A stretch of 64,000 bases of DNA from positions 2,790,001 to 2,854,000 of the forward strand of contig NZ_CP016761.1 of NCBI RefSeq assembly GCF_001642935.1. Direction: 5' to 3'. Source of the DNA: Fictibacillus arsenicus (GTDB lineage Bacteria; Bacillota; Bacilli; Bacillales; Fictibacillaceae). The position numbers were made by a program, and so were the translations under genes. Shown here one piece after another: positions 3,804 through 55,174 of this stretch (the stretch's first letter is position 1; each line of letters opens with the position of its first letter). The notes beneath the pieces are model-generated. The model had not been told where the DNA came from. It was given only the letters and a program-made list of their open reading frames with translations, and made no database searches.

Positions 3804-4039
3804 GGCTGTTTTCGTAAGCTTTGTTGCTCGTGGAAGTGGTTGATCTCCGTTTCAGATGCTCGCCACCTCGACACTCTGCGTCCTTAGGTGTCTCACCTGT
3901 CACACTGATCCTAAGTGGGACAGGTGAGACCATTTAATGTCGCATAGCGACAAATGGGCTCACCGCACACCCTGCGAAAAGCGAGCCCTGTAACGGAAAT
4001 TAACGTCTTACAAAAGCAACAAAGTTTACGAAAACAGCC
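3804..4039. repeat. Dispersed GC-rich element copy 1 (A-A' palindromic form)
   Basis: A 236-bp copy with matching terminal inverted repeats: GGCTGTTTTCGTAAGCTTTG at the left and its near-perfect complement ending AAAACAGCC at the right (one mismatch over 25 bases). Inside are the family hairpin GTGAG...CTCAC (3924-3963, stem CCATTT/AAATGG, inner GTCGC/GCGAC) and a second inverted repeat, GTCTCACCTGTC...GACAGGTGAGAC (3889-3929). Unlike most copies, both ends are of the same A type. Confidence 0.85.
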
Positions 4040-4059
4040 TTTAAAAAAAATCGTTTCTA

Positions 4060-4150
4060 AAAGAATGCTGCTTGGTGATTTGTTTTGTTGAGACCCTTTG
4101 CTGACAAGGGAGTATAATGTGCGAGCATCCTGGAGCGGAAATTAACAGCA
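4060..4150 (-). repeat. Degenerate partial copy of the dispersed element
   Basis: GCGAGCATCCTGGAGCGGAAATTAAC near 4117-4145 matches the right-hand interior of the element (split here: GCGAGCATCCTGGAGC then GGAAATTAAC). No intact end is left. It directly follows copy 1 and fills the gap before the ytoI stop. Confidence 0.6.
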
Positions 4151-4159
4151 TCCGAATTT

Positions 4160-5485
4160 TTATGAACGGTGATCGATTAATTGAGCCATCATCATAGCCT
4201 TTCCTGCAATCTTACCATCATGATATATCTCAACATCTACTTTTCCAAATTTCCTGCTCACTTCCAGCACTCTAGGAACAAATTGTATTTCACTCTCTAT
4301 CTGAACAGGCTTAATATAATAAAAGGTTACGTTCTCAACGACTACATCACCTTTTTTAATTCTTCTTAAAGCCTTACGAGCTGTTTCTGTTACTAGTGTC
4401 ATTAATACGCCGTACGAAACTGTTCCTAAATGATTCGTCATTTGCGGAGTGATTTTACAGGTAAAGTTAACTTCATTCTCATACTTATGTTCTTTTAATT
4501 CGGTCGTGATTAAATCATCGAATGTCGCACCAACTTGAGGCTGTTTCTGCATCATCTGCATCGCCTTTAACACATCTTGCCGGGTTAAGATTCCTATCAG
4601 TTTATGTGAAGAACCTGTAACCGGAAGCAGCTCAATGCCTTCCCAAATCATCATGTGTGCACATGCTGCGACAGATGTTTTTTCCGTTACTGTTAATGGT
4701 GATCGTGTCATTACTTTTTCAATATTCATGTCCTCGGATACACCAATAATATCTTTCGATGTTACTACACCGGTTACACGATTCGATTGATCTACTACAG
4801 GATAACGGCTATGCATTGTTTCACGGTTAAGTTCATGCCAGCGCTCGACCTTATCGTGCTGAAAAAGATAGTGTGTTTCATCAATTGGAATTAGAATATC
4901 TGAAGCGAGTACGATATCTTTTTTAATTAACCGGTCATGAATCGCCTTATTGATCATTGTCGCAACAGTAAACGTATCATAACTCGTAGAGATAACCGGC
5001 AGTTCCAATTCGTCAGCAAGTCTTTTCACTTCTTCTTCCGTGTCAAATCCACCTGTGATCAAAATAGCACTGCCAGCCTTCAATCCTAACCCATGAGCAT
5101 TAATACGGTTACCGACAATCAATAAACTTCCCGCATCAACATAGCGCATCATCGCTTCTAGTTTCATTGCACCGATCACAAATTTGTGTAAGGTTTTATG
5201 AAGTCCAGCTCGGCCTCCAAGTACCTGTCCTTCAACAATATTAACAACTTCGGCAAATGTTAATTTTTCAATATTGCTTTTCGCTTGCCGTTCAATCCGA
5301 ATGGTCCCTACACGCTCAATAGTGCTGACAATCCCTTGGTTTTCTGCTTCTTTAATCGCGCGATAGGCCGTTCCTTCACTAACTGTTAAATCTTTTGCGA
5401 TTTGCCGAACGGAGATTTTCGACCCAACATCAAGCTCTATAATATGCTGCAATATTTGTTCATGCTTTGTTAGCATTGCATTCAC
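4160..5485 (-). CDS. ytoI: CBS/DRTGG-domain regulator YtoI
   Basis: A 441-residue multidomain cytoplasmic protein. It has an N-terminal winged helix-turn-helix (about residues 5-65, VRQIAKDLTVSEGTAYRAIKEAE), a DRTGG domain (about 70-180), a CBS-domain pair (about 190-310; MHSRYPVVDQSNRVTGVVTSKD and ELLPVTGSSHKLIGILTRQD type blocks), and a C-terminal hotdog thioesterase-like domain (about 330-435, HLGTVSYGVLMTLVTETA). The CBS pair suggests an adenylate-sensing transcription factor, but the ligand and targets are not known. The first ATG follows AAAGGAAC. Confidence 0.88.
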   Translation of the reverse strand: MNAMLTKHEQILQHIIELDVGSKISVRQIAKDLTVSEGTAYRAIKEAENQGIVSTIERVGTIRIERQAKSNIEKLTFAEVVNIVEGQVLGGRAGLHKTLHKFVIGAMKLEAMMRYVDAGSLLIVGNRINAHGLGLKAGSAILITGGFDTEEEVKRLADELELPVISTSYDTFTVATMINKAIHDRLIKKDIVLASDILIPIDETHYLFQHDKVERWHELNRETMHSRYPVVDQSNRVTGVVTSKDIIGVSEDMNIEKVMTRSPLTVTEKTSVAACAHMMIWEGIELLPVTGSSHKLIGILTRQDVLKAMQMMQKQPQVGATFDDLITTELKEHKYENEVNFTCKITPQMTNHLGTVSYGVLMTLVTETARKALRRIKKGDVVVENVTFYYIKPVQIESEIQFVPRVLEVSRKFGKVDVEIYHDGKIAGKAMMMAQLIDHRS

Positions 5486-5558
5486 CGTTCCTTTTATCTG
5501 TATCTATCTGTTTCAGTTAATTGACTAATACAGATTATACAGGCAATGGAACAGAAAC

Positions 5559-5798
5559 TCAACTTTCCATGTGTATCCTTTTTCGTGACTTTTGATTAAC
5601 AAAAGCCTGTCTCTTAACTGTTCTTTTTCTAGCTTCATTTTTATTAAACAGTAAACTTAATACCAGCATTCCGGCAAATCCTGTCCAGGCAATTGAAAAA
5701 AAGGTTTGCATCGTAAGTCCTTCAAATGATAATGCAGGTAATCCCACGTAAATTAATACAACGAGCATAAGTAACTTTGCTATTTTTTCCTGACTCAT
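5559..5798 (-). CDS. Small membrane protein, 79 aa
   Basis: Two hydrophobic segments (about residues 6-22 and 30-47) followed by a strongly basic tail (NEARKRTVKRQ...KSRKR). The ATG at 5798 is preceded by an excellent AGGGAGGTTG ribosome site; upstream in-frame starts are not. It lies 54 bases downstream of the ytkL-type gene on the same strand and is probably cotranscribed with it. It has no recognised domain. It sits where B. subtilis also carries a small membrane-protein gene, but I cannot confirm orthology. Confidence 0.7.
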   Translation of the reverse strand: MSQEKIAKLLMLVVLIYVGLPALSFEGLTMQTFFSIAWTGFAGMLVLSLLFNKNEARKRTVKRQAFVNQKSRKRIHMES

Positions 5799-5852
5799 AA
5801 AACAACCTCCCTTACTATAATTCGTATGCATAGAAAGGGAGGTTAGAATCAT

Positions 5853-6533
5853 TTATATATTTAAGCTTTCACCGCTCTGCATCACTTTTCCTTTACTTCC
5901 GAGCTTGGACACAAAAGAGCTTTCTGGATCTTGTTCGATAGGCGGGAAGGTATTGTAATGAATAGGAACGGTTATATGAGCTCCGATCCATTCCGCTGCG
6001 ATTAAGGCATCTTCTGGTCCCATCGTAAAATTATCTCCTATCGGCAAGAAGGCCGCATCAGGTTTCTCCAGTTCACCGATCATTTTCATATCGGAAAAGA
6101 GTGCAGTGTCCCCTGCATGATAAAGGGTTTTATTGTCAGAGGAGAATAAAATTCCTGCAGGCATACCTGTATAGACGACTGTTCCGTCTTCTTCCTCGTA
6201 ACTAGATCCATGAAAGGCTTGTGTGAATTTCACTTTTCCCCATGAAAATTTACGGCTGCCTCCGATATGCATCGGGTGTGTTTCTACACCTTTTGAAGCA
6301 ATGTAGTTTGCAAGTTCAAACGGTGCAACAACCAAGCTGTTATTTTTCTTTGCGATTTCAACTGTGTCGCCAACATGATCATTATGACCATGCGTTAAAA
6401 GAATTACATCTGCTTTAACATCTTCAACGCTGATTTTACATTGACCATTTCCATTAATAAAAGGGTCGATCCAAACAGAGTGCTCACCGGTTTGAATTTC
6501 AAGTACAGAATGTCCATGATACGTCACTTTCAT
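5853..6533 (-). CDS. ytkL: UPF0173 metal-dependent hydrolase (YtkL type)
   Basis: A 226-residue metallo-beta-lactamase-fold protein. The motif [12 protein letters not shown] near residue 55 is the HxHxDH metal site, with later ligands in [11 protein letters not shown] and a conserved His near the end ([12 protein letters not shown]). The substrate is unknown. The ATG at 6533 follows GAAGGAGGGTG; upstream in-frame codons lack a ribosome site and the family starts MKVTYHGHS. The small membrane-protein gene follows. Confidence 0.92.
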
Positions 6534-6608
6534 TATAAATACACCCTCCTTCAAATAATAGGATTCGTTATTGCATCCTACTTTCCTTTTCATACCCTAT
6601 TATAGGAC

Positions 6609-6665
6609 ATAAAAAAAGTCCGATTCCAGCCCAGAAGGAATTAAAGGCTGAAACTCGGACTTTTA
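6609..6665 (-). terminator. Intrinsic terminator of ald
   Basis: AAAAGTCCGA and TCGGACTTTT arms, with an inner CAGCC/GGCTG pairing. The T run lies on the minus strand, so this ends the ald transcript. Confidence 0.8.
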
Positions 6666-6675
6666 TTCTTTTCAG

Positions 6676-7800
6676 TTATTGTTTTTGAGCCAGAATTGAA
6701 CCTGCGTCTTTGTAGTCTAACTGATGAGATTCTGCAACTGCTTTATAGGTTACAAAGCCATCGAGTGTATTAATACCTTTTAATAATGCTTCATTATCCA
6801 GACACGCTCTAACATATCCTTTGTTAGCAATCTGCAATGCATATGGAACCGTTACGTTAGTCAAACCAATTGTAGATGTACGCGGAACAGCCCCTGGCAT
6901 ATTCGCCACCGCATAATGCAATACACCATGTTTTTCATAAGTAGGATTATCATGAGTCGTAATCCGATCAACTGTTTCAAAAATTCCGCCCTGGTCGATA
7001 GCTACGTCAACGATAACAGAACCTGGCTGCATTCCCTTAATCATCTCTTCGGTTACCAGTTTCGGTGCCCTTGCACCCGGAATCAGAACTGCACCAATAA
7101 CTAGAGCCGACTCTTGAACAGCAAGTGCTATGTTAAGAGGGTTCGATATCAGAGTATTGATCTCGACACCAAAAATATCATCGAGATGACGAAGACGTTC
7201 AGGGTTTAAATCGATAATGGTAACGTCTGCACCAAGACCCATAGCAATTTTGGCTGCATTCGTTCCCACAACTCCGCCGCCAATAACAGTTACCTTTCCG
7301 CGCCTTACACCTGGAATTCCGCTTAGCAGAATCCCAAGTCCGCCTTTAGGCTTCTCTAAAAACTGTGCGCCGATTTGTGCGGCCATTCTTCCAGCAACTT
7401 CACTCATCGGTGTCAACAGAGGCAGCGTTCCATTTGGAAGCTGAACGGTTTCGTACGCAATTCCGATTACTTTGTTTTCAGTTAAAGCTTTTGTCAATTC
7501 AGGTTCAGGAGCCAGATGCAGATAAGTGAATAAAATCAGACCTTCACGAAAAAAACAGTACTCTTCCGGCAATGGTTCTTTAACTTTCATAACCATTTCC
7601 ATTGACCACGCTTGGGTCGGAGTCTCAACAATCACTCCGCCTGCACCTTCGTATTCTTCGTCTGAAAAACCAGATCCAATACCTGCACCTCTTTGTATAA
7701 AAACTTCATGGCCAGACGCCACTAAATTTAGTACACCAGCAGGAGTCATTGCAACTCTGTTTTCATTATTTTTAATTTCAGTCGGTACACCGATCTTCAC
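6676..7800 (-). CDS. ald: Alanine dehydrogenase
   Basis: NAD-dependent reversible conversion of L-alanine to pyruvate and ammonia, used for alanine catabolism and important in spore development. 374 residues, the usual length. Visible are the N-terminal [20 protein letters not shown] substrate-domain start (Arg15 region), the Rossmann motif [15 protein letters not shown] near residue 173 and the conserved [15 protein letters not shown] near the end. The start is GTG, 6 bases after AGGGAGG. It appears monocistronic. No AdeR-type regulator lies beside it. Confidence 0.96.
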
Positions 7801-7993
7801 TGCATTCCCTCCCTGAAAGTTATTGGAAATTTTTTCTTCATATCTATAGTTACCATACCACCAAAAAACTAAAATAAAAAGACGGATTTATTTCTATATG
7901 TAAGACAGCTTTTAATGTTCCCGAATTAATATAGAAACATTCATTGAACGTGATTAAAGGAAGCGAGTACGTGTCGAAGCATGGCCGAAAATT

Positions 7994-8113
7994 ACGTATT
8001 TTTCATTTAATTTGCGATTTTTAGAAATAACGTGCGATTAATAAAATTAACGCGTGTTTTTCTTAAATAAGGTGTGATTATGTAATCTGCGATGTGAAAA
8101 TATACACGCGATT
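7994..8113. repeat. 20-bp phased array 1 (core GCGATT)
   Basis: Six degenerate units recur at exactly 20-bp steps (7994, 8014, 8034, 8054, 8074, 8094), each opening with ACG/GCG/GTG followed by an AT-rich tail. The best units are GCGATTTTTAGAAATAACGT and GCGATTAATAAAATTAACGC. It fills most of the gap between ald and the gene at 8159-8320; the rest of 7801-8158 is AT-rich ald upstream sequence. Confidence 0.65.
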
Positions 8114-8114
8114 T

Positions 8115-8149
8115 CAAAAAAAAGGATAACTCCCGGCGAGTTATCCCTA
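8115..8149 (-). terminator. Intrinsic terminator after the arg cluster
   Basis: GGATAACTC/GAGTTATCC stem with CCGGC loop and a T run on the minus strand, just downstream of the small gene ending at 8159. It overlaps the edge of the 20-bp array. Confidence 0.85.
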
Positions 8150-8158
8150 CTTTTTTGC

Positions 8159-8320
8159 CTATTGAAGACTTTCCTCTTCGTCTAACTTTGTGCGCTGCTG
8201 ACCTTGATCAACTTTATCAACTACTCCGCTTTGGTAAGCTTCAGTAATCTGCTGATGAACGGTCATTTCGCCTTCTTGATCATATTCCAGCTGCTGATTC
8301 GGATGCTTCTCATTTTGCAT
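8159..8320 (-). CDS. Small DUF4025-like (YozQ-type) protein, 53 aa
   Basis: A 53-residue acidic, glutamine-rich protein, MQNEKHPNQQLEYDQ then EMTVHQQITEAYQSGVVD. The central block resembles the THEQVSDAYMEGTID pattern of the DUF4025/YozQ family; this resemblance is from memory and modest. The ATG follows a very strong AAGGAGGAAG site, and a terminator follows the stop. It lies 66 bases downstream of argH with no terminator between, so it may ride on the arginine transcript. Function unknown. Confidence 0.65.
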   Translation of the reverse strand: MQNEKHPNQQLEYDQEGEMTVHQQITEAYQSGVVDKVDQGQQRTKLDEEESLQ

Positions 8321-8386
8321 TTTACTTCCTCCTTCGATATAGAAACCTTGTCATTAGTTTCTGTCTTCAGAAGAAAGTTATCTCGG

Positions 8387-9772
8387 TTAATTACTGGAAA
8401 TAAATACGGCGGATTTTGCTGCCTCAAGCTGCTGTCGCACTGCTTGGAATCCAGTTCCACCTTCAGAATTTCTTTTTTCAACTGCAGTCTTAGGAGAAAG
8501 TGCCTCATACAAATCCTCTTGTACGATCGGACACCACTCTTTATATTCCTCAAGACTAATATCAAGCAAGTAGCATCCCTTTTGAATGCAATGAAGAACC
8601 ATCTGTCCTACTAGTTCATGCGCTTCTCTAAAAGGAATCCCATTTTTCGCAAGATAATCTGCAAGTTCAGTTGCATTAGAAAAATCTTGATGGACGGCTT
8701 TGTTCATTCGGTCCTCATTAATTTTTATTTCATTCATCATGCCAGTCATAATGCTCAAACACCCTTTGACTGTTTTGACAGCATCAAATACCGGCTCTTT
8801 GTCTTCTTGCATGTCTTTGTTATATGCAAGGGGAAGACCTTTCATTAATGTAAGCAATGAAAGAAGGGAACCATACACTCTTCCGCTTTTTCCGCGAATC
8901 AGCTCAGCCATATCCGGATTCTTTTTTTGCGGCATCATGCTGCTGCCGGTAGTGAAGCTGTCACTGATCTCGATAAACCCAAATTCTTCAGATGACCAGA
9001 GGATCAGTTCTTCACAAAAACGTGATAAATGCATCATGATCATTGAAGCATTGCTGCAGGATTCGATAGCAAAATCTCGATCACTGACTGCGTCTAAGCT
9101 GTTCAAATATTTTTTAGAGAATCCTAGTTCGTTCATTGTTACATTTCGATCAATCGGAAATGTTGTTCCAGCAAGTGCACCGGCTCCAAGCGGCATAATA
9201 TCTGTTCTTTTCAAACTGTCTTGCAGCCTCTCTTTATCTCGTTCAAGCATCCAAAAATATGCTAATAGATGATGAGCAAATGAAACAGGCTGTGCACGCT
9301 GAAGATGCGTGTACCCAGGAATGATTGTTTCAACATGGTCTTCAGCTAAATTCAGCAGTGAGTTTTGAAGTTCATTAATTTGATCTATAATCTCGAGGGT
9401 TTCTTCTTTTACGAAAAGATGAAAATCAGTTGCCACTTGGTCATTTCGGCTTCTTGCCGTATGGAGTTTTCCGCCATCCGGACCGATTTGATCAGTAAGC
9501 AGTTTCTCAAGGTTCAAATGTATGTCTTCATACTTTACTGAATACTCCAGCTTGCCTTCCTGCTCTTGTACTTGAAGATCTTGAAGACCATTTTTTATAT
9601 TTTCATATGCACTCTCTTCGATAATTCCACTTTGGAATAACATTTTGGCATGAGCAAGGCTGCCTTTAATGTCATGACTAGCTAGTTGTTTATCAAAAGA
9701 AATGGAAGCTCCAAATTCATCTACCCATTCTTCCGGCTGTTTCGAAAAACGGCCACCCCATAATTTCTTCAC
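8387..9772 (-). CDS. argH: Argininosuccinate lyase
   Basis: Last step of arginine synthesis: argininosuccinate to arginine plus fumarate. 461 residues, full length. Diagnostic blocks are [16 protein letters not shown] near residue 110, the [13 protein letters not shown] histidine region near 160 and the family signature [12 protein letters not shown] near 280. The start is GTG, overlapping the argG stop by 4 bases (GTGA), so the two are translationally coupled. Confidence 0.97.
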
Positions 9773-10971: not shown

Positions 10972-11000
10972 ATGATATCTCTCCTCCTGAAAACCTGTTA

Positions 11001-11027: not shown

Positions 11028-11106
11028 AATTGTTTATAAAAATACCATTTATAATAATACATACTATAACAAAAAGAGAGAAGAAAATGCAAGGTTATTC
11101 TTTAAA

Positions 11107-11501: not shown

Positions 11502-11506
11502 AATAC

Positions 11507-13738: not shown

Positions 13739-13958
13739 GGCTGTTTTCGTATACATTGTTGTTTTGTGAAAGTTGTTGCTTTCCGTTCCAGGTACTCGCT
13801 TTCCGCGGGGCAGGCGGCGAGCCACATTCGAACGTTTCACTTATAAGTGTCTCACCTGCCCGCCAGTCCCGCAGGAGTCTCGCACCTTCCCATCCAATCA
13901 ACTTTTCAATGATGAATTTCAAAATCTCTCCGCAGCAACATTCTTTTAAAAATAAGCC
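13739..13958 (+). repeat. Dispersed GC-rich element copy 2 (A to B)
   Basis: Starts GGCTGTTTTCGTATACATTG, continues through ACTCGCTTTCCGCGGGGC and the central hairpin (here GAGCCAC...GTGTCTC arms with an ACTTATAAGT core), and ends with GGAGTCTCGCACC...AGCAACATTCTTTT...AAGCC. It occupies most of the 376-bp gap between ackA and the acetyltransferase gene. Confidence 0.85.
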
Positions 13959-16478: not shown

Positions 16479-16697
16479 GACTGTTTTTGTAAACTTTGTT
16501 GCTTTTGAAAGTTGTTAATTTCCGTTACAGGACTCGCTTTCCGCAGGGTGTGCGGTGAGCCCATTCGTCGCCTTGCGACATTGAATGGTCTCACCTGTCC
16601 CACTCATCCTGCTGGAGTCTCGTCCTTCCACTCCAATTAACTTTTCAGTGAAGCACTTTGTGATAGCCTCTCAGTAGCAACAATCTCTAAGAAAGGC
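16479..16697 (+). repeat. Dispersed GC-rich element copy 3a (A to B)
   Basis: Starts GACTGTTTTTGTAAACTTTG and ends GTAGCAACAATCTCTAAGAAAGGC. The central hairpin (16555-16594) has GTGAGCCCATTC and GAATGGTCTCAC arms around GTCGCCTTGCGAC. Its B end abuts copy 3b in the opposite orientation. Confidence 0.85.
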
Positions 16698-16990
16698 TGT
16701 TTTCTTAAGGATTGCTGCTTATGGCTTTTTCTATTTTCATCATTTGCAAGTTGATTGGAGCACAAGGTGCGTGCCTACCACATGAGAAGCTTCTTGCTAG
16801 GCATGCGACGAGGAAGCTTACCTCGTTAGCAATTACTTGTAGACGCAGGAGCAAAGATACTTCTAAGAAGCGGTCAGGTGGAGACTCCTAATGGCGCAAA
16901 GCGGCAGGAGGCTCACCGCACGCCCCGTGGAAAGCGAGCAACCTGGAGCGGATATCAACTACTTTCAAGAGCAACGATAAGAAAAAAGCT
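16695..16990 (-). repeat. Dispersed GC-rich element copy 3b (B' to A')
   Basis: Starts GGCTGTTTTCTTAAGGATTG and ends with the complement of the A side (GCTCACCGCACGCCCCGTGG, then AAAGCGAGC). It carries a longer internal segment (about 16770-16880, with GCATGCGACGAGGAAG and TTGTAGACGCAGGAGCA) that recurs in the copy at 48731. Copies 3a and 3b fill the 634-bp gap between ytxK and tpx. Confidence 0.85.
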
Positions 16991-16998
16991 TATAAAAA

Positions 16999-32467: not shown

Positions 32468-32865
32468 AGGCTATTTTCTAAAAGATTGTTGCTTTTGGTT
32501 CAATTTTCCATCCTTTTCATTGACAAGGTGATTGAAGTGCAAGGTGCGAGACGAAAAGCGTAAGCGTCATTTTAGTTAGCCCTATCTCCTGTCCTTTGTT
32601 GATGCAAGTTCACGGTACGTGTTCTTAAATTTATTACACGTTAGCTCAGAATTATTGAGTTTGGCTCAAAAACGCCGAGTTACGCTCAAGATCCACTCGT
32701 TTCGCTCAAACTACCTTTGGTTTCGCTCAAAATCTTCCTTTTTCGCTCAAAGTAACTAAAAACGAGGATAGCACTCGAGAGGCTCACCGCACGCTCCGCG
32801 GAAAGCGAGCATCCTGTAACGGAAATCAACCACTACCAAGAGCAACAAAGATTGCGAAAACAGTC
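32468..32865 (-). repeat. Dispersed GC-rich element copy 4 (B' to A'), with an array inside
   Basis: Starts GGCTATTTTCTAAAAGATTG and ends with GCTCACCGCACGCTCCGCGG...AGCAACAAAGATTGCGAAAACAGTC. The normal central hairpin is missing; a 20-bp phased array (32644-32750) and AT-rich sequence occupy its place, making this copy about 400 bp. Confidence 0.8.
32644..32755. repeat. 20/21-bp phased array 2 (core CGCTCAAA)
   Basis: GCTCA recurs at 32644, 32664, 32684, 32704, 32725 and 32745 (steps 20, 20, 20, 21, 20). The best unit starts are TTTCGCTCAAA and the 10-bp stretches between cores differ. It is nested inside a copy of the dispersed element. Confidence 0.75.
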
Positions 32866-35224: not shown

Positions 35225-35465
35225 AAAAAAAGTCCCTTTCAAATTGAAAGGGACGTGATTACAATCTCGCGGTACCACCCTAATTAAAAGCTCGCTAAAA
35301 AAAGCTTTTCACTTCATTTCATAACGGTTTCAATCCGTTCCTTGCTACTAAACGGTTCACAAGGAAAGCTCCAGGAGGTAATTCACAAACTGCCTATGTG
35401 CTGGTTTGCATCAACCACCAGCTTTCTGAAACAGGGAGACATCTGCTACTTATTCCTATCTTAGC
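35225..35465 (-). ncRNA. T-box leader of tyrS
   Basis: On the minus strand: the T-box AGGGTGGTACCGCG (35281-35268), then a terminator hairpin GTCCCTTTCAA/TTGAAAGGGAC (35254-35232) with T7. Stem I has the GCTGGTGGTTGATGCAAACC distal region (about 35421-35402) and a likely specifier TAC (35380-35378) in GAATTACCTCC, which is a tyrosine codon. Uncharged tRNA-Tyr should stabilise the antiterminator and switch on tyrS. Confidence 0.92.
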
Positions 35466-35489
35466 TTTATCATTATTATTGTTCTTTTA

Positions 35490-43828: not shown

Positions 43829-44104
43829 GGCTGTTTTCGCAAACTTTGTTACTTTGAAAGTAGTTGATTTCCGTTAAAGGATGCTCGCTTTCCGCGGGGC
43901 GTGCGGTGAGCCTCCCTAACGCTTTGCGCTGGCGGGGTCTCACCTGTCCCGCTGATCCCGCAGGACAAGGAAGGCTTCGACAGCATTACATCGCACGAAG
44001 AAAATGTTGATTTTCATTTTCGAGGAGTCTCGCACCTTGCACTCCAATCAACTTTCAATGAAGAGGATAAAAAATGACCTAGCAACAATCTTTTGAAAAA
44101 AACC
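43829..44104 (+). repeat. Dispersed GC-rich element copy 5 (A to B, long form)
   Basis: Starts GGCTGTTTTCGCAAACTTTG. Hairpin 43906-43943 has GTGAGCCTCCC and GGGGTCTCAC arms around GCTTTGCGC. A 60-bp insert (about 43965-44026, GACAAGGAAGGCTTCGACAG... to TTTTCGAGGA) interrupts the B half; the same insert is in copy 8 in the other orientation. It fills the gap between ccpA and mtnN and ends three bases from the ccpA stop. Confidence 0.88.
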
Positions 44105-44106
44105 TT

Positions 44107-46567: not shown

Positions 46568-48721
46568 GTGGACAAAAATCTTTTATTTGCACTGGATATC
46601 GGCACTCGCTCAGTTGTCGGTATAATATTAAAGCAGCATTCTGATGGAAAATATGAAGTTTTGCATATGAAAGTCATGGAACATGAAGAGCGTTCTATGC
46701 TGGATGGACAAATCCATCATATACCTGCCGTTGCTAAAGTTATTAAAAAAATTAAAGAACAGCTTGAAACGGAAACTGGACCACTCCAAAAAGTTTGTGT
46801 AGCTGCTGCAGGACGAGCATTAAAAACAGTAAAAGGCAGATCAGAAAGAGACATATCAGCAGTTGCTGTAGCAATGCAAGAAGAAGTTATACATATGGAG
46901 CTTGCTGCCGTTCAGCATGCTCAGTTCCAGCTGGCTAGCATACTGGATGAAAAATCTAATCACATCTACGATTGTGTAGGATATTCGGTTCTTCATTATT
47001 ACCTGGATGATCAGGAAATCGGAAGCTTTATCGGTCAGCAAGGTTTAACAGCTTCCGTGGAGGTAATCGCAACATTTCTCCCAAGAGTGGTTGTCGAATC
47101 CTTAATTAGAGCTTTACGAGAAGCAGATCTTGAGATGGAGGCTTTAACACTCGAGCCAATTGCAGCAATCAATGTGCTGATCCCCCAATCTATGAGGAAA
47201 TTAAATGTGGCTCTCGTTGACATAGGTGCAGGAACATCTGATATAGCTTTAACAGCCGAAGGTACTGTTGTGGCTTATGGTATGGTTCCAGTAGCAGGGG
47301 ATGAAATCACTGAAGCGATCAGCTCAGAGTTCCTATTGGATTTCCCAGTGGCTGAAGAAATGAAGCGATCCCTATTCAATAAAGATTTTGTGGAATATAC
47401 CGATATTTTAGGATTTTCTGCAAAGAAATCTAAATTCGAAGTTCTAGAAAAAATACAGCCAGCTATTGAAAATCTTGCTGAAAAAATAACGCAAGAAATT
47501 CTTCAGCTGAATGCAAAACCACCGCAAGCTGTCATGCTTGTAGGCGGAGGAAGCATGACACCAAGGCTGCGTGAGAAAATTGCAGAAAAACTTAATTTAC
47601 CAATAGAACGTGCAGCTATTCGGGGTATTGATGCTATAACATCACTTACTTCATCCATTAAACAGACCGGTCCTGAATTTGTTACCCCTGTTGGGATTGG
47701 GATAGCTGCAAGAGAAAATCCTGTAAAATATGTAACCGTCACTGTAAACGAAAAAACGATAAGGTTATTCGAAGTAAAAAAACTAACAATTGGGGATGCG
47801 CTTATAGCAGGCGGCGCTGACCTTTCAAAGCTATATGGCAGACCTGGAATGGGTCTAATGATCAAAGTCAATGGTGAAGTAAAAATGTTTAAAGGCGGTC
47901 TTGGCACTCCACCGCAAATTATTATGAGCGGAAAGGAAGCCTCTCTTTCGCATGAAATTTTTGACGGAGCTGTTATCTCCTATAATGCAGGCGTAAATGG
48001 AGCAAATGCCTCTATTGTCGCAAGTGAAGCCGTTTCAGAACATTTAATTAAAACGATTGTAATTGATGGTGAACCGACAACCATCGAAACGCAATATTAT
48101 GTTAATCATCAATCTGTTACCCCTGATACTCTATTAAATGACCGGGATGAACTTATTTCTTATTTTCCTAGTACTATAGAAGAAATGATGGAGATAAAAG
48201 GTTTGCACCTGATCGACAACAACTCTTCATTCTCTGTAAAAGTCGACGGCAAGCCAATCCAATTGTCCCGCAGTATAAATAATTCCATTTATTTAAACGG
48301 CTGTGTCATGGTTAGAGGATCAAACTGGAACGATGGTGATCATCTCACTTTCGAAGCTGCTAAAGACAAACAGGTAACCTTAAAAGATTTACTTGATGTT
48401 CTTCAGTTAAATCTTCTTCAATCCTGTTCGGTAACATTTAATAATGAAGAAGTATCACTGACCAGGCCTTTATTCAAGTTCTACCGTAATGGTGAGTCAC
48501 TTACGGAAGATTCTGTTCTTTATCCAAATGACGAACTAAATATGGAAAAAACAAAACAGCAGCCGTTTATTTTTCAGGATATTTTTACAAAGGTTGATAT
48601 TGCAATTTCCCCGCGGCCAGGTGAAACATTAGTCATATTAAAAAACAAAGAAAAAGCAGGCTTTCAAACAGAGATTGAAACAGGAAATTCATTAGAATTA
48701 AAGTTTGAGGTTCCTATTTAA
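46568..48721 (+). CDS. FtsA-like actin-fold protein with a long C-terminal extension
   Basis: A 717-residue protein. Residues 1 to about 385 are an FtsA/PilM-type ATPase: LLFALDIGTRSVVGII (phosphate 1), an SHS2-type insert near 70-150, LVDIGAGTSDIALTAEG (phosphate 2) and VMLVGGGSMTPRLREKIAE (adenosine motif). True FtsA stops near 430 with an amphipathic membrane helix; here there is none. Instead about 330 further residues follow, with two repeats of beta-rich, KVDGKPIQLSRS-like segments. GTG start after AGAGGTG. The function is unknown; it is not the cell-division FtsA, which is normally paired with ftsZ. Confidence 0.8.
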   Translation: MDKNLLFALDIGTRSVVGIILKQHSDGKYEVLHMKVMEHEERSMLDGQIHHIPAVAKVIKKIKEQLETETGPLQKVCVAAAGRALKTVKGRSERDISAVAVAMQEEVIHMELAAVQHAQFQLASILDEKSNHIYDCVGYSVLHYYLDDQEIGSFIGQQGLTASVEVIATFLPRVVVESLIRALREADLEMEALTLEPIAAINVLIPQSMRKLNVALVDIGAGTSDIALTAEGTVVAYGMVPVAGDEITEAISSEFLLDFPVAEEMKRSLFNKDFVEYTDILGFSAKKSKFEVLEKIQPAIENLAEKITQEILQLNAKPPQAVMLVGGGSMTPRLREKIAEKLNLPIERAAIRGIDAITSLTSSIKQTGPEFVTPVGIGIAARENPVKYVTVTVNEKTIRLFEVKKLTIGDALIAGGADLSKLYGRPGMGLMIKVNGEVKMFKGGLGTPPQIIMSGKEASLSHEIFDGAVISYNAGVNGANASIVASEAVSEHLIKTIVIDGEPTTIETQYYVNHQSVTPDTLLNDRDELISYFPSTIEEMMEIKGLHLIDNNSSFSVKVDGKPIQLSRSINNSIYLNGCVMVRGSNWNDGDHLTFEAAKDKQVTLKDLLDVLQLNLLQSCSVTFNNEEVSLTRPLFKFYRNGESLTEDSVLYPNDELNMEKTKQQPFIFQDIFTKVDIAISPRPGETLVILKNKEKAGFQTEIETGNSLELKFEVPI

Positions 48722-48730
48722 TGACCATTT

Positions 48731-48980
48731 AAGTTGATTGGAGCGGAAGGTGCGAGACTCCAGCGTGCCAACCACCTGAAAATACTTCTTGTAAGGCATG
48801 CACGAGGAACACGCTGAGTCAGGATTTGCTTGTAGACGCAGGAGCACACTAACTTCCTTGAAGGTGAGACCCCGTCAGCGCGAAGCGATAGGGAGGCTCA
48901 CCGCACGCCCCGCGGAAAGCGAGCATCCTGGAGCAGAAATCAACCACTTTCAAGGGCAACAAAGCTTGCTAAAACAATCT
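48731..48980 (-). repeat. Dispersed GC-rich element copy 6 (B' to A', end-truncated)
   Basis: Lacks the B terminal repeat; begins AGTTGATTGGAGCGGAAGGT next to the FtsA-like stop. It carries the same extra internal segment as copy 3b (GGCATGCACGAGGAACACGC, TTGTAGACGCAGGAGCA), then the A' side GCTCACCGCACGCCCCGCGG and GGGCAACAAAGCTTGCTAAAACAATC. Confidence 0.82.
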
Positions 48981-48986
48981 TAAAGA

Positions 48987-49017
48987 AAAAGCGCAGCAGT
49001 CTACCTGCTACGCTTTT
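48987..49017 (-). terminator. Intrinsic terminator of ytxJ
   Basis: AAAAGCGCAGCAG/CTGCTACGCTTTT stem with one mismatch and a five-base loop. It overlaps the ytxJ stop codon. Confidence 0.75.
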
Positions 49018-49346: not shown

Positions 49347-49374
49347 TAATAATCTACCTCCATAATAAAAAGAC

Positions 49375-49401
49375 AAGAAAAAGAATCTGATTCTTTTTCT
49401 T
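49375..49401 (-). terminator. Hairpin between ytxH and ytxJ
   Basis: AAGAAAAAGAATC/GATTCTTTTTCTT perfect 13-bp AT-rich stem with a one-base loop region. It could attenuate transcription into ytxJ. Confidence 0.55.
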
Positions 49402-49427
49402 ATCTTTTCATATTTGTTATTTACTTA

Positions 49428-50306: not shown

Positions 50307-50341
50307 TATACGAGACACCTCCTGAAAGTATATTATTAGCT

Positions 50342-50367
50342 TTTCCCGAGTTTATATCAAAGGAAAC
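50342..50367 (-). promoter_or_regulatory. Candidate sigma-B promoter of ytxGHJ
   Basis: Minus strand GTTTCC (50367-50362), a 14-bp spacer and GGGAAA (50347-50342), agreeing with GTTT-N12-15-GGGWAW. It lies 36 bases upstream of the ytxG ATG; this operon is a known sigma-B target in B. subtilis. Confidence 0.6.
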
Positions 50368-50483
50368 GTGTTTTATTAAGTATTCTGGGCTTAAAGCTAA
50401 ATTCCTTTAATAGAACATTACAAATTGTTTAAATTAAGTTAAAATAAAGAAGATATTAAATATATATAGGGGGATTATTCAAC

Positions 50484-51596
50484 ATGAGAGATCCGCGAAT
50501 TCAGCAACTCGCAAAAAACTTGATTACATACTCGGTAAACTTACAAAAAGGTGAGAAAGTTCTCATCGAAAACTTTGGACTGCAAAAAGAATTAGTAAAT
50601 GCATTAGTACAAGAAGCATATGCTGCTGGAGGATATCCTTTTGTATTACTAAAAGATCATTCAGTAATGCGTGCACAGTATACTCAAGCATCTGAAGAAC
50701 AAATGGAGATGATCGCAAAGCATGAAGGAGAGCTAATGAGCCAGATGGATGCTTATATCGGCTTGCGCTCAGGTGACAACATCAACGAAATGTCAGATGT
50801 TCCTTCTGAAAAGATGGCACTCTATGAAAAAACCATTTTTGCAATGCACCGCAAGATTCGTATAAAGAAAACAAAATGGTGTGTTCTTCGTTATCCAAAT
50901 GCTTCAATGGCACAATCAGCCAGCATGAGTACTGAAGCATTTGAGGATTTCTATTTTGAAGTCTGCAACCTTGATTACGGCAAGATGGATGAAGCAATGA
51001 CCGCACTAAAAGATTTAATGGATAAAACAGATAAAGTGCGTATTACGGGACCAGGAACAGACCTGTCGTTCTCTATTAAAGATATTCCTTCTATCAAATG
51101 TTCGGGCCAGAACAATATTCCTGATGGAGAAGTATTTACAGCTCCAGTTAAAGATTCAGTAAATGGAACTATTTCTTACAATACTCCTTCACCTTACAAT
51201 GGCTTCACTTTTGAAAATGTACAATTAACTTTTGAAAATGGGAAAATTGTTAAGGCGACAGCAAACGATTCAGAGCGTATCAACAAAATCTTTGATACTG
51301 ATGAAGGTTCCCGTTATGTTGGTGAGTTTGCAATTGGTGTAAATCCATTTATCAAACACCCGATGAAAGATATCTTATTTGATGAGAAGATTGACGGAAG
51401 TTTCCACTTCACTCCAGGTCAAGCTTATGAAGAAGCTTATAACGGAAATGAATCTAACATTCACTGGGATATGGTAATGATTCAGCGCCCTGATTACGGC
51501 GGTGGAGAAATCTATTTTGATGATGTTTTAATCCGTAAAGATGGTGTATTCGTATTGCCAGATCTTGAACAGTTGAATCCAGAGAACTTAAAGTAA
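50484..51596 (+). CDS. M29-family aminopeptidase
   Basis: A 370-residue metallo-aminopeptidase of the thermophilic M29 family (AmpS/AmpII). Recognisable blocks are LITYSVNLQKGEKVLIENFG at the N-terminus, VRITGPGTDLSFSIKDIP near residue 187, NIPDGEVFTAPVKDSVNGTI near 210 (metal ligand Glu) and the C-terminal SNIHWDMVMIQRPDYGGGEIYFDD with His and Asp ligands. Somewhat shorter than AmpS of about 410 residues, so it is a distinct subgroup. GGGGGATT precedes the ATG. Divergent from ytxG. Confidence 0.9.
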   Translation: MRDPRIQQLAKNLITYSVNLQKGEKVLIENFGLQKELVNALVQEAYAAGGYPFVLLKDHSVMRAQYTQASEEQMEMIAKHEGELMSQMDAYIGLRSGDNINEMSDVPSEKMALYEKTIFAMHRKIRIKKTKWCVLRYPNASMAQSASMSTEAFEDFYFEVCNLDYGKMDEAMTALKDLMDKTDKVRITGPGTDLSFSIKDIPSIKCSGQNNIPDGEVFTAPVKDSVNGTISYNTPSPYNGFTFENVQLTFENGKIVKATANDSERINKIFDTDEGSRYVGEFAIGVNPFIKHPMKDILFDEKIDGSFHFTPGQAYEEAYNGNESNIHWDMVMIQRPDYGGGEIYFDDVLIRKDGVFVLPDLEQLNPENLK

Positions 51597-51605
51597 TATA
51601 AATGG

Positions 51606-51633
51606 GACCGCCCTATAGTTAATTTAGGCGGTC
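51606..51633 (+). terminator. Intrinsic terminator of the aminopeptidase gene
   Basis: GACCGCC/GGCGGTC stem with a 14-base loop and TTTTCT tail, 10 bases after the stop. Confidence 0.78.
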
Positions 51634-51642
51634 TTTTCTAAT

Positions 51643-51866
51643 GGCTGTTTTCGTAAACTTTGCTGCTTTTGGAAGTAATTGATTTCCGTTACAGGTTGCT
51701 CGCTTTCCACGGGGCGTGCCGTGAGCCTCCTAGCGCTTTGCGCAGTTAGGAGTCTCACCTGTCACACTCGTCCCGTAGGAGTCTCGCACCTTGCACTCCA
51801 ATCAACATCTCAAAGAAGAGAATGGAACCAAATTACTCAAAAGCAAAAATCTTTTAGAGAAAAGCC
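51643..51866 (+). repeat. Dispersed GC-rich element copy 7 (A to B)
   Basis: Starts GGCTGTTTTCGTAAACTTTG. Hairpin 51721-51758 has GTGAGCCTCCTA and TTAGGAGTCTCAC arms around GCGCTTTGCGC. Ends GCAAAAATCTTTTAGAGAAAAGCC. It uses the short B half without insert. Together with array 4 it fills the 468-bp gap between the aminopeptidase gene and murC. Confidence 0.88.
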
Positions 51867-51914
51867 TTTCTAATAGATAGCTGAATATTATTGTATGTGT
51901 TCTTTTATTTGTTA

Positions 51915-51992
51915 CGCGTTCGCGCAAAAACATGTGTGTTTCATGCAGAACATTGCTAGTCCCGCGCCAATTCCTTTTAGTTTCACGCGGTA
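51915..51992. repeat. 21-bp phased array 4 (core CRYGC)
   Basis: CGCGCA, CATGCA, CGCGCC and CACGCG recur at 51921, 51942, 51963 and 51984 (steps of 21), each after TT or TCC. It is the most degenerate of the four arrays and lies 50 bp beyond element copy 7. Confidence 0.5.
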
Positions 51993-52009
51993 CCTCCAAA
52001 TCTTAATCC

Positions 52010-52062
52010 AAAAAAAAGCTGACACCATAAAGTTTTATCATTATGGGTCAGCTTCTTTTTTC
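52010..52062 (-). terminator. Intrinsic terminator of murC
   Basis: AGCTGACACCATAA/TTATGGGTCAGCT stem with one mismatch and T-rich tail on the minus strand. Confidence 0.85.
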
Positions 52063-52064
52063 TC

Positions 52065-53372
52065 TTATGGAGTTGCTGTAAGTGCTTCTTCGTATGCTCT
52101 TTGGAACTTTTGGATGTCACCAGCTCCCATGAACAGAAGTACACCATTATCGAATTTCTTAAGAACATCGATGGTATCTTCTGATATAAGCTCCGCATTA
52201 GGAATCTTTTCTTTAAGATTATCGATTGAGAGATTACCAGCATTTTCTCTAGCGGAACCAAATATATCACAAAGGTATACATGGTCAGCTTCGCTTAGGC
52301 TCTCTGCAAATTCATCCAGGAAAGTTTTTGTGCGGGTAAACGTATGCGGCTGGAAAATAGCAACCACTTCACGATTTTTATACTTATATTTTGTAGCTTC
52401 GATTGTAACTTTAATTTCAGTCGGATGATGCGCATAGTCGTCAATCAAGATTTGATCGCCAACTGCCTTTTCTGAAAATCTGCGCTTCACACCTGAAAAG
52501 GTCTTTAACTGCTCTTTAATAATATCCATTGGCAGTGTTTCGTAATGACAGATCGCAATCACTGCTAATGCATTCAATACATTATGAGTTCCGTATCCAG
52601 GAATCTGGAACGTACCATAAAACGTATTTCGCACAAATACATCAAAAGTCGTACCTTCATCACCGCGTTGAATGTTTTTAGCCTGAAAATCGTTATGATC
52701 TTCAAATCCGTAAAATACAACGGGAACTTGAGCATGTATTTGTTGAAGATTTGCATCATCTCCGCATGCGATAATCGCTTTTTTCACTTGCATCGCCATC
52801 TGTTGGAATGCGCTGATTACATCATCCAAGTCAGAAAAGTAATCAGGATGATCAAAGTCGATGTTTGTAATGATTGCATAATCTGGTTCATATGAAAGAA
52901 AATGTCTTCGGTATTCACACGCTTCAAACACAAAGTATTCGCTTCCCATGCTTCCTTTTCCGGTTCCATCTCCGATAAGGAAAGAAGTAGGCTTTGCTGC
53001 CCCTACAACATGTGCAAGCAGTCCCGTCGTTGAAGTCTTTCCGTGTGAACCTGTAACGGCAATAGAAGTGAAGTTAGAAAGAAATTCACCAAGAAAGTGA
53101 TGATACCTGTGAATCGGTATATTCTTTTCATTTGCAGCTTGAATTTCCTCATGCTGCTCACCAAATGCATTACCTGCAATAATGGTTTGACCCTCTTGAA
53201 TGTTATTTTTGTCAAACGGTAACACAGGAATGTTTCTCTCTTCCAGCGCTGACTGCGTAAAAATGTATTGAGTAATATCAGATCCTTGTACATCATGACC
53301 CATGTCATGAAGGATTTGTGCCAACGGGCTCATCCCTGTCCCTTTAATTCCAATAAAATGGTATTGTGTCAT
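52065..53372 (-). CDS. murC: UDP-N-acetylmuramate--L-alanine ligase
   Basis: Adds L-alanine to UDP-MurNAc, the first peptide step of peptidoglycan synthesis in the cytoplasm. 435 residues. N-terminal Rossmann motif [16 protein letters not shown] loop [12 protein letters not shown] (residues 107-117), [10 protein letters not shown] and [14 protein letters not shown]. The ATG follows GGAGGGC. The 230-bp gap upstream to 53602 shows no gene. Same position between ytxG and sftA as in B. subtilis. Confidence 0.97.
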
Positions 53373-53602
53373 GTAAAGCCCTCCACAAAAAGAACACCTT
53401 CTAAAAGGCCTATTTGTATTATTATATGCCTGATTACTTGAATGGTTATATCTTACAAATTACAGGCTGATTCAATACTTGAACCATTATAGCAAAAATT
53501 AAGTATCATCACCATGATAGACAGATGATAAGATTCTATAGTCCGATATTAAAAGAATACCTTCCTATAACTTCACCAAAAAAATGAATATTTAATCCAA
53601 AT

Positions 53603-54700
53603 CTATTCTACGCGTTCAAGTCTTGGATTGTGTCGATAGATTCTTCCTGCTTTTGCTTGATGATTGTCATGCATCAGGACATTGTCGCCAGTGAATCCAA
53701 TATTAATCTTTAATAGATTACTGCCTACACCATAAATATCCACAGGAACCTTTTGCTCTTCAAATTGTTCGATTCTTTCTTTTTTGAAGCCTCCGCTTAC
53801 AACGATTTTCACATGCTGAAAGCCTTCTTCATCCAGAGCTTTACGAAGTGCAAATATCAGCTCAGGGTTAACGCCTCTTGGATCAAAAGAACCAAGCACG
53901 TCTGGGTTTCTGAAAAAGTATTGGTCGACCATCGTTCGTGAAGTATCAACCCTTACCCCTTTTAGCGTTTCCCCAAACTCTCTCGCTACTTTTAGAGCAT
54001 CTGTAATTACATCGTTGTTGTAATCGACAAGTGAAATAAGATCATCTTCCGGATATTTTGCATGGTATGCTTTAGTAGCTTCAACAATATCGCCATTAAA
54101 AATTTGTATAAGAGCATGAGGCATAGTCCCCATACCTTTTTTGCCCCACCATTCGTTCATAGCATGTGTAGCTTGTGCGGTTGAGCCCCCGATATAGGAT
54201 GCATATCCATCTCCAGCCTGCTGAGCAAAGTGATCGTCTCTGTCACCCATAAAAATTACAGGCTTTTGGATACCGGATTTGCTCGCAGCTTTAACTACAT
54301 TATAAACATTCGTAGCTACCGACGTTCTTCTGGCTAGGATTCCATCAATCATTCCTTCGAGAAAGCCAAAATTCTGATAGGGTCCTTTTATAGTGAGTAC
54401 TGTTTCAAAAGGAGAAATTTTATCTCCGTCTTTCAACGAATAGATTTCTAAGGAGTCTGGATCTTTAGCAAACGTCTTTATAAGTGCGATTGCTTCATCT
54501 GAACCGCATAAAACAGCCTCGCTTTTTTGGAAAAACTGCATGGTTACTACATTATCAGGTTTAAACGATTCTACTATTTCACATGTTTTAAGAAAATAAA
54601 CAGCAGAGAACCATCCCTCTCTGATCCGTTCATCAAATTTAAATGTTTTATTCGTCAGCCGCTTAATTTTTCCCTGCAGCTTTAATTCTATTTCTTTCAT
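53603..54700 (-). CDS. Nicotinate phosphoribosyltransferase
   Basis: Converts nicotinate and PRPP to NaMN for NAD salvage. 365 residues, the short subgroup. Conserved blocks are VVTMQFFQKSEAVLCG (N-terminal domain), ARRTSVATNVYNVV, IGGSTAQATHAMNEWW, SLVDYNNDVITDALKVA, RVDTSRTMVDQ and the glycine-rich VSGGFKKERIEQF. It differs in length from B. subtilis PncB (about 490), so I give no symbol. ATG follows GAGGAG. Not part of the B. subtilis gene order here, so it may be an insertion at this locus. Confidence 0.86.
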   Translation of the reverse strand: MKEIELKLQGKIKRLTNKTFKFDERIREGWFSAVYFLKTCEIVESFKPDNVVTMQFFQKSEAVLCGSDEAIALIKTFAKDPDSLEIYSLKDGDKISPFETVLTIKGPYQNFGFLEGMIDGILARRTSVATNVYNVVKAASKSGIQKPVIFMGDRDDHFAQQAGDGYASYIGGSTAQATHAMNEWWGKKGMGTMPHALIQIFNGDIVEATKAYHAKYPEDDLISLVDYNNDVITDALKVAREFGETLKGVRVDTSRTMVDQYFFRNPDVLGSFDPRGVNPELIFALRKALDEEGFQHVKIVVSGGFKKERIEQFEEQKVPVDIYGVGSNLLKINIGFTGDNVLMHDNHQAKAGRIYRHNPRLERVE

Positions 54701-54845
54701 CTATTTACTCCTCATGACTTTTTCATGGTTAATAACAGAAGGGAACTATTCCCCACACTATAATAGCCGACAAGTCCCAATAACTCAAGAAAATCATTTA
54801 TGATGGGCTTCTTCATATGCAGATCATTCACCGGAAAACAGAAAA

Positions 54846-54866
54846 ACTGGCGGGATCACCGCCAGT
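54846..54866 (-). terminator. Intrinsic terminator downstream of sftA
   Basis: ACTGGCGG/CCGCCAGT stem with T-rich minus-strand tail. It lies beyond element copy 8, so a transcript from sftA would run through the element before stopping. Confidence 0.75.
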
Positions 54867-54895
54867 TTATTCTATCTTTAAGACTCTTTTCTATA

Positions 54896-55174
54896 GGCTC
54901 TTTTCTAAAAGATTGTTGCTTTTAAGTAATTTTGTTCATTCTCTTCACTGACAAGTTGATTGGAGTGCAAGGTGCGAGACTCCTCGAAAATGAGAATCAA
55001 CATTTTCTTCGTGCGATGTAACACTGTCGAAGCCTTCCTTGTCCTGCGGGATCAGCGGGACAGGTGAGACCATTCAATGTCGCAAAGCGACGAGTGGGCT
55101 CACCGCACGCCCCGCGGAAAGCGAGCATCCTGGAGCGGAAATCAACTACTTCCAATAGCATTACAAAATCGGCC
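54896..55174 (-). repeat. Dispersed GC-rich element copy 8 (B' to A', long form)
   Basis: Starts GGCTCTTTTCTAAAAGATTG. It carries the same 60-bp internal insert as copy 5 (TCCTCGAAAATGAGAATCAA... to GTCGAAGCCTTCCTTGTCC), then the hairpin (arms GTGAGACCATTC and GAGTGGGCTCAC around GTCGC/GCGAC) and the A' side. The final repeat is decayed. It starts five bases beyond the sftA stop and, with the terminator, fills the gap to 54701. Confidence 0.88.

What the first reader, a model, noticed from the sequence alone, without database searches (positions are those of the whole stretch)
3804..55174. Dispersed GC-rich element, nine copies plus one partial in 64 kb, always intergenic
Seen directly: copies at 3804-4039, 13739-13958, 16479-16697, 16695-16990, 32468-32865, 43829-44104, 48731-48980, 51643-51866 and 54896-55174, plus a fragment at 4060-4150. 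All lie outside genes, mostly just beyond a stop codon, in both orientations. Intact ends are a 20-25 bp GGCTGTTTTCGTAAACTTTG type (A) and a GGCTCTTTTCTAAAAGATTG type (B). No copy encodes a transposase. One copy per 7 kb is dense. Inference: a MITE- or BIME-like family spread in trans, perhaps co-opted as transcript ends.
Basis: seen in the sequence. Interest (0 to 1): 0.75.

Follow-up and report, generated by a model that had tools for sequence, protein, structure and literature searches.

The report
Hairpin core shared by unrelated transposons
The repeats are small mobile DNA elements that most likely jump with a borrowed enzyme, and their hairpin-forming centre is shared with quite different jumping elements in many relatives of Bacillus, which raises the question of what that centre does for them.

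Summary
The repeats are real and are MITEs. They lie where stated, in a Fictibacillus-type chromosome with at least 133 such elements. They have 24-bp inverted ends and 8-bp AT-rich target duplications; for 8 of 8 window gaps at least one relative lacks the element. Ends and duplication length match IS1595-family transposons, so movement in trans by an IS1595 transposase is the best reading, although none is detected in this genome. 'Co-opted transcript ends' is not supported.

The surprise is the GC-rich interior: a 129-bp module with sharp edges (GTTGATT...AATCAAC) that also sits between unrelated transposon ends, including upstream of IS1182 transposase genes (12 of 12 in one orientation). 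It occurs in 133 of 199 genomes and 67 of 98 genera sampled from the order, shows compensatory pairing (16 pairs against 5.1 shuffled) and matches no Rfam family above threshold. It follows 81 of 90 element ends found by end sequence alone, yet is not specially protected at single loci, so it looks kept for the elements' own spread. Its function is inferred, not shown.

The parts
3804..4039 (.). A-A hybrid element (A tip at both ends); core remnants 3839-3912 and 3913-4004
   Evidence: relatives G006 and G014 carry an A-B element followed by a B-A element here
4050..4167 (-). decayed B-A element, most of the core lost
13739..13958 (+). short A-core-B element; core 13775-13902
   Evidence: gaps of 15 and 31 bp (no element) in G009 and G012
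16479..16697 (+). short A-core-B element; core 16514-16641
   Evidence: no element in G009, G012, G010
16695..16996 (-). B-core-A element with a long internal variant; A tip decayed
   Evidence: short form at the orthologous site of G006
32468..32865 (-). B-core-A element with a foreign insert that holds GCTCAA-type repeats; core half 32768-32830
   Evidence: 62-bp gap without element in G012
43829..44104 (+). long-form A-core-B element; core 43863-44052 with a 60-65 bp insert
   Evidence: no element in G014, G009, G010, G016 (gaps 4-8 bp between flank hits); short form in G006
48710..48980 (-). B-core-A element, B tip decayed, long internal variant
   Evidence: no element in G009 and G010, deletion remnant in G014 (by inspection)
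51643..51866 (+). best-preserved short A-core-B element; 8-bp duplication TTTCTAAT on both sides; core 51678-51806
   Evidence: no element in G014 and G012
54896..55174 (-). long-form B-core-A element; core 54955-55146
   Evidence: short form in G014, two elements in G009, none in G012, G010, G016

Best explanation
The copies are a high-copy MITE family. Their 24-bp ends (GGCTGTTTTCGTAAACTTTGTTGC and GGCTCTTTTCTAAAAGATTGTTGC) are those of an IS1595-family transposon, whose transposase, supplied in trans, inserts them into AT-rich intergenic DNA with 8-bp target duplications. Between the ends lies a 129-bp imperfect inverted repeat, the core (GTTGATT...AATCAAC), that was found in no IS1595 element examined but is shared with IS1182 transposons and other MITEs. 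Shown: ends, duplications, presence/absence between species, sharp core edges, covarying structure, co-occurrence of core and ends. Inferred: the trans-acting transposase, and that the core is kept because it helps any transposon that carries it. The mechanism I rate likeliest (about 0.35) is insulation: transcription running in from outside makes RNA that folds into the long hairpin and is stalled or cut, which shields the ends (and, in IS1182, the transposase promoter) from read-through. The confidence below is for the MITE/IS1595 part and the shared structured core, not for insulation.
For: 8-bp register: 79% flank identity against 47% null (sd 1.7%), 28 exact 8-mers against about 1 expected, 82 copies of which 45 are from the own genome. 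Relatives: for 8 of 8 window gaps at least one of six relatives lacks the element. Parent: of 37 IS1595 loci examined, 16 gave inverted ends beginning GG with a duplication of at least 7 of 8 bases (2 GGCTGTTTTCG type, 14 GGCTNTGTTA type); the search demanded the duplication, gave one apparent false hit (L511) and nothing for 20; 0 of 37 contain the core. L395 and L397 are IS1595 transposases by NCBIfam. Own genome: no IS1595, ISL3 or IS6 transposase at the thresholds used. Shared core: 272 cores fall into six labelled arm types plus 96 unassigned; identity between types jumps from 0.29 to 0.86 at the left edge and falls from 0.88 to 0.43 at the right. Structure: 16 of 31 pairs with both sides changed against 5.1 +/- 1.6 shuffled and at most 8 when slid; an IS1182-linked core with an unrelated outer stem folds alike (L264, z = -8.0). 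Core tied to spread: 81 of 90 A-tips found by tip sequence alone are followed by the core in the right orientation; among 48 copies the core is as conserved (0.82) as the tips (0.81), the inner B arm only 0.59. In IS1182 the core lies within 400 bp upstream of the transposase start in one orientation in 12 of 12 cases.
Against: No transposase for these ends is detected in the own genome, and own-genome copies listed are at most 88% identical to the query (up to 92% for long-form queries), so the family may be inactive here. The core holds no terminator-like site. At orthologous sites it is no more conserved than flanks (0.874 v 0.922 against G006, six sites; 0.937 v 0.946 against G014, three sites), so no host role per locus is seen. 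In the stored fold G-U cells outnumber A-C cells (36 v 17, counted; the fold was chosen on that strand), and 4 of 4 cores fold better as the strand opposite to IS1182 transposase transcription, which fits insulation of that gene poorly. The 12 IS1182 copies are not all independent (about seven groups by eye), and in L250, L254 and L311 a promoter-like AT box also precedes the core. IS1182 copies without the core exist, including all 8 own-genome loci. Element detection and copy retrieval partly used core sequence, which favours core conservation; one search does not have this bias.
Confidence: 0.88

Rival explanations
1. The core acts as DNA: when single-stranded at replication or extruded as a cruciform it folds and recruits a host factor or brings the two ends together, so any DDE transposon profits.
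For: Structure is maintained by compensatory change; it is kept in gene-less MITEs and in IS1182 alike; element orientation relative to genes shows no bias, as expected if transcription does not matter.
Against: Upstream of IS1182 transposases the core is in one orientation, 12 of 12; the surplus of G-U over A-C cells points weakly to RNA.
Confidence: 0.27
2. The core has no function: it spreads because neighbouring and dispersed copies recombine or convert each other, so transposon ends get swapped around a homogenised centre.
For: The A-A element at 3804-4039 looks like a hybrid of two neighbours; at 3 of 6 orthologous sites long and short interiors differ, and at 13739 the core differs far more (98/128 identical) than the flanks (912/998).
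Against: 81 of 90 tips keep the core and the nine core-less cases differ from one another; the inner B arm in the same elements decays to 0.59 while the core stays at 0.82; compensatory changes.
Confidence: 0.25
3. The core encodes a small structured RNA, made from the strand that reads GTTGATTGGAG, that acts in trans on a transposase, its mRNA or a host RNase.
For: That strand folds better in 4 of 4 tested cores; purine-rich internal-loop stretches (GAGACTCC, GGAAAGCGAG) are among the most conserved.
Against: The B arm in front of that strand is the least conserved part; the consensus promoter scans show no excess and only weak 9-of-12 matches in the long-form insert, on the other strand of the element; no Rfam match above threshold. 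No expression data were available.
Confidence: 0.13
4. The core is itself an independent mobile element that inserts into transposons.
For: Sharp edges with 7-bp inverted ends in many different contexts; a Peribacillus IS1182 with core shows a repeated stretch on both sides of the insert compared with core-less relatives (by inspection).
Against: No target duplication at the core edges over 89 flank-distinct copies.
Confidence: 0.1

Closest known systems
IS1595-derived MITEs (for example the 165-bp, 7-copy element related to ISHwa6 in Haloquadratum walsbyi, 25-bp ends, 8-bp repeats; table passage read in PMC3852290)
   Same: Non-autonomous, about 25-bp inverted ends, 8-bp duplications, IS1595 ends
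   Different: At least 133 copies here, matches in all 17 genus mates, asymmetric, and carrying a structured core that is absent from the 37 IS1595 loci examined
Central domains of SINEs (CORE, V, Deu, Ceph domains; passages read in PMC3272025)
   Same: A conserved middle shared by mobile elements with different ends; function inferred to lie in the elements' own spread
   Different: Bacterial DNA transposons with inverted ends and DDE transposases, not retroposons; the core has covarying secondary structure
IS1182-family transposons
   Same: Some carry the same core between left end and transposase gene (12 of 40 listed starts)
   Different: Window elements have IS1595-type ends and no gene; the 8 own-genome IS1182 loci lack the core
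REP/BIME elements with RAYT
   Same: Dispersed, intergenic, palindromic
   Different: 8-bp target duplications and 24-bp transposon ends here
bcr1 and other Bacillus stem-loop families (table passages read in PMC2267715; the bcr1 paper itself is not held)
   Same: Short, intergenic, structured Bacillus repeats
   Different: No sequence comparison with bcr1 or Bhal-1 was made; by the title in that reference list bcr1 is specific to the B. cereus group

Membership tests
MITE | short, no transposase gene | tested here: met
   window elements span about 118-398 bp; only short ORFs of 82-90 aa overlap them in the 80-aa list, judged spurious
MITE | terminal inverted repeats and target duplication | tested here: met
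MITE | insertion polymorphism between relatives | tested here: met
   8 of 8 gaps lack the element in at least one relative
IS1595-mobilised | ends and duplication length match autonomous IS1595 elements | tested here: met
   (type-I ends with duplication in L395 and L513, tips only in L399)
IS1595-mobilised | IS1595 transposase in the same genome | tested here: not met
   none in G000; found in a few genus mates (G012, G015 with PF12762; G012, G006 with NF033547)
IS1595-mobilised | transposase moves the element | not testable with these tools
   needs a bench assay
ISL3-derived | ISL3 transposase in genomes with many copies | tested here: not met
   0 in own genome and 17 genus mates
IS6-derived | IS6 transposase in genomes with many copies | tested here: not met
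   0 in own genome; in the genus only two weak hits below cut-off, both in G016
REP/BIME-RAYT | no target duplication, short palindromes | tested here: not met
   8-bp duplications
REP/BIME-RAYT | RAYT gene | not tested
   no search run
any Rfam RNA family | covariance-model match | tested here: not met
   window, gathering: only a T-box elsewhere; three core loci, E up to 1: one sub-threshold hit of 19.2 bits against a cut-off of 50
bcr1 | sequence similarity to bcr1 | not tested
   bcr1 sequence not at hand

The most novel reading that the evidence does not exclude
One structured nucleic-acid module has been taken up repeatedly by unrelated bacterial DNA transposon families (MITEs with two types of IS1595 ends, IS1182 transposons, GGGGCTGTCC and GAGGCCACTG types) and does the same job for all of them, independent of transposase: a bacterial counterpart of the central domains of SINEs, spread through most sampled genera of the order that contains Fictibacillus.
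Probability: 0.4. Interest if true: 0.82.

Novelty: new variant of a known kind. Interest (0 to 1): 0.62.

Why it matters
In ordinary MITEs the ends are conserved and the middle is free to drift. Here the middle is as conserved as the ends, keeps its base pairing by compensatory change, and is shared by elements with unrelated ends and transposases. If it helps any transposon that carries it, it is a transposase-independent propagation module; I know of none described in bacteria (recalled; my paper searches were limited), and it is testable with a simple hop assay. It would also explain a very common GC-rich repeat of Bacillaceae-type genomes (in many of the genomes there are over 100 loose first-look candidates) that Rfam 15 does not name.

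Tried and rejected
ISL3 as parent was my first guess from end sequence and duplication length (recalled). Rejected: no ISL3 transposase in the own genome or 17 genus mates, and the four relatives with most ISL3 matches (G059, G041, G044, G054) have 0, 1, 1 and 1 element matches. IS6 rejected. An autonomous element bracketed by the tips was sought in 393 fetched loci and the window: six tip pairs 0.6-3.5 kb apart were found, all with further tips inside, none a candidate; it appeared only through the IS1595 family search. Independent transposition of the core: no duplication at its edges. Host function per locus: not supported. An orientation bias with gene direction seen in a first set of 38 tandem copies (26 v 12) vanished with 73 (41 v 32). 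Phages and viral contigs: no match. Plasmids: 13 records, in 12 of which the best match starts inside the element. A first count of 136 own-genome elements included truncated repeats at locus edges; the recount gives 133 after dropping 4 edge cases and duplicates. The gene-context figures were the same in both.

Literature: ten searches, mostly capped listings of titles and starts of abstracts. No listed paper appeared to treat this repeat, and six short sequence strings gave only unrelated papers. Passages read: PMC2267715, PMC10969869, PMC10045372, PMC3272025, PMC3852290. The library lacks most subscription papers, so 'not in print' is not claimed.
Full report
What is there. The window (own genome G000, 4.06 Mb, positions 2,790,001-2,854,000) holds ten elements at the stated places. 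Apart from one hybrid, each is A arm, core, B arm. The A tip is GGCTGTTTTCGTAAACTTTGTTGC, the B tip GGCTCTTTTCTAAAAGATTGTTGC.

They are mobile. On 82 full-length copies from the loci fetched by then (45 of them from the own genome), the eight bases on both sides agree to 79% against 47% for shuffled pairs (sd 1.7%), with 28 exact 8-mers against about one expected; lengths 7 and 9 exceed their nulls by about 0.10, length 8 by 0.32. A 12.6-kb part of the window has matches in all 17 genus mates. I compared the orthologous gaps in six of them (not every flank was found in every one): at all 8 gaps examined, which hold the ten elements, at least one relative has no element, for example 4-8 bp between flank hits in four relatives where the window has the 276-bp element at 43829. 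Some relatives carry a different element in the same gap. The 48710 gap of G014 holds a deletion remnant, not an empty site, so loss also occurs.

Who moves them. ISL3 was the first guess and failed: no ISL3 transposase in the own genome or 17 genus mates. IS6 failed too. IS1595 fits: L395 (G038) is a 1.6-kb transposon with an intact IS1595 transposase (NCBIfam NF033547, E 2.6e-60) and ends GGCTGTTTTCGTAAGGATTGTGGC / GGCTGTTTTCGTATAGATTGTTGC. Over 37 IS1595 loci (30, 7), an end search that demanded a first base G and a duplication of at least 7 of 8 bases gave 17 hits, one of which (L511) looks false; 20 gave none. Of the 16, two have type-I ends (L395, L513) and 14 have GGCTNTGTTA ends. A passage in PMC10045372 gives 8-bp duplications for the IS1016 group of IS1595. 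The own genome has no detectable IS1595 transposase, so its copies are stranded or depend on visiting transposons.

How many. 133 distinct, untruncated elements were found in 490 kb of own-genome sequence (overlaps included) that was mostly chosen because it held hits. A covariance model of the core matched all 150 candidates that the tool scored, out of 1047 first-look candidates, so 150 cores is a floor. In relatives, 45 of 60 genomes and all 17 genus mates among them match the whole-element query.

The core. A blastn hit on a Peribacillus plasmid lay just upstream of an IS1182 transposase. Flanks of 272 cores were labelled as type-I IS1595 ends (113), IS1595-II ends GGCTCTGTTAAA (15), GGGGCTGTCC (21), TGTAGACAAA of IS1182 (17), GAGGCCACTG (5), GTGTCCCAAAAG (5) and unassigned (96, some of them decayed type I) (the labels allow one mismatch, a few are doubtful by eye). 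Several non-type-I forms have their own duplications (a search that rewards duplications; for example L055, L058, L291, L328, L358). Between types, identity jumps at the left edge from 0.29 to 0.86 and falls at the right from 0.88 to 0.43. The edges have no duplication of their own. None of the 37 IS1595 loci carries the core. So the MITEs combine IS1595 ends with a core from elsewhere.

Structure. In 34 cores chosen for diversity (36 passed the 87% filter; two were left out), 31 pairs hold in 95.4% of cells; 16 pairs show changes on both sides against 5.1 (sd 1.6) in shuffles, and 4-8 when partners are slid. The structure was derived from the same alignment, so the slid control is not free of bias, and shuffles ignore relatedness. 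In L264 (upstream of an IS1182 transposase) the outer stem of about 20 bp has unrelated sequence but the same fold, with the inner-loop stretches GCGAGACTCC / GGAAAGCGAG kept. The strand reading GTTGATTGGAG folds better in 4 of 4 cores tested on both strands, and G-U cells exceed A-C cells 36 to 17, which weakly favours it as an RNA. A longer form with a 60-65 bp insert occurs in the window and on Paenibacillus and B. subtilis plasmids.

What the core is for. (i) 81 of 90 A-tips found by tip sequence alone are followed by the core in the right orientation; the nine others differ from one another by eye, so no core-less subfamily is seen. (ii) Among 48 own copies the core is as conserved as the tips while the inner B arm is not (copies were partly retrieved by similarity, which favours tip and core). 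(iii) After insertion the core is not specially protected: against G006 (six sites), flanks 0.922, arms 0.891, core 0.874; against G014 (three sites), 0.946, 0.925, 0.937. So selection seems to act on spreading copies, not on host loci. (iv) In IS1182, 12 of 40 listed transposase starts have the core within 400 bp upstream, all 12 in one orientation; in most an AT-rich, -10-like box (such as TTTTAAAATA) follows the core by eye, and in L250, L254 and L311 one also precedes it. The 40 rows include some loci twice and 8 own-genome loci, none of which has the core. I infer that the core blocks incoming transcription or its product; this is the least certain step, and the strand evidence speaks partly against it.

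Exchange. The A-A element and the long/short differences at 3 of 6 orthologous sites (16695, 43829, 54896) show that interiors change in place. Simple deletion between short repeats can explain some of these; at 13739 the core is strongly diverged (98/128 identical against 912/998 in flanks and 68/78 in arms), which suggests conversion.

Context. Of 121 own-genome copies with gene calls (12 of 133 dropped: 7 with a gene over 500 bp away, 4 with short flanks, 1 A-A), 73 are between tandem genes, 30 convergent and 18 divergent, none inside an ORF. Neighbours scanned in the window are ordinary genes such as acetate kinase, ribosomal protein S4 and FtsK/SpoIIIE. Terminator-like sites lie near several elements but none within one, in the parts scanned.

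Noticed in passing
window 35246-35471 (-): T-box leader, Rfam RF00230, 153 bits.
   Followed up: no
window 32553-32767 and from about 51874: A second dispersed repeat (ACGGTACGTGTTCTT...TTACACGTT with runs like TTTCGCTCAA), partial inside the 32468 element and beside the 51643 element, and in gaps of relatives G006 and G009.
   Followed up: no
L248, L249, L251, L252: IS1182 copies sit at intrinsic-terminator-like hairpins and appear to duplicate the whole hairpin as target (by inspection).
   Followed up: partly
own genome, L252 and L276-L282: Two intact and six split IS1182 copies, none with the core in the 400 bp upstream, plus a few distant relatives.
   Followed up: partly
L099, L119: Records named Pseudomonas sp. 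ISL-84 carry the Bacillales core; possibly mislabelled.
   Followed up: no
L244, L245: A gpi-gnd-zwf block with a long-form core is shared by plasmids of Paenibacillus urinalis and B. subtilis; two Priestia plasmid records match the same core stretch.
   Followed up: no
L395, L399: IS1595 transposons with other small ORFs beside the transposase.
   Followed up: no
alignment A2, columns 35/106: Some Fictibacillus relatives carry a swapped G-C/C-G pair in the core at several loci (for example G006 at 13739 and 43829, by inspection), as if copies evolve in concert.
   Followed up: partly
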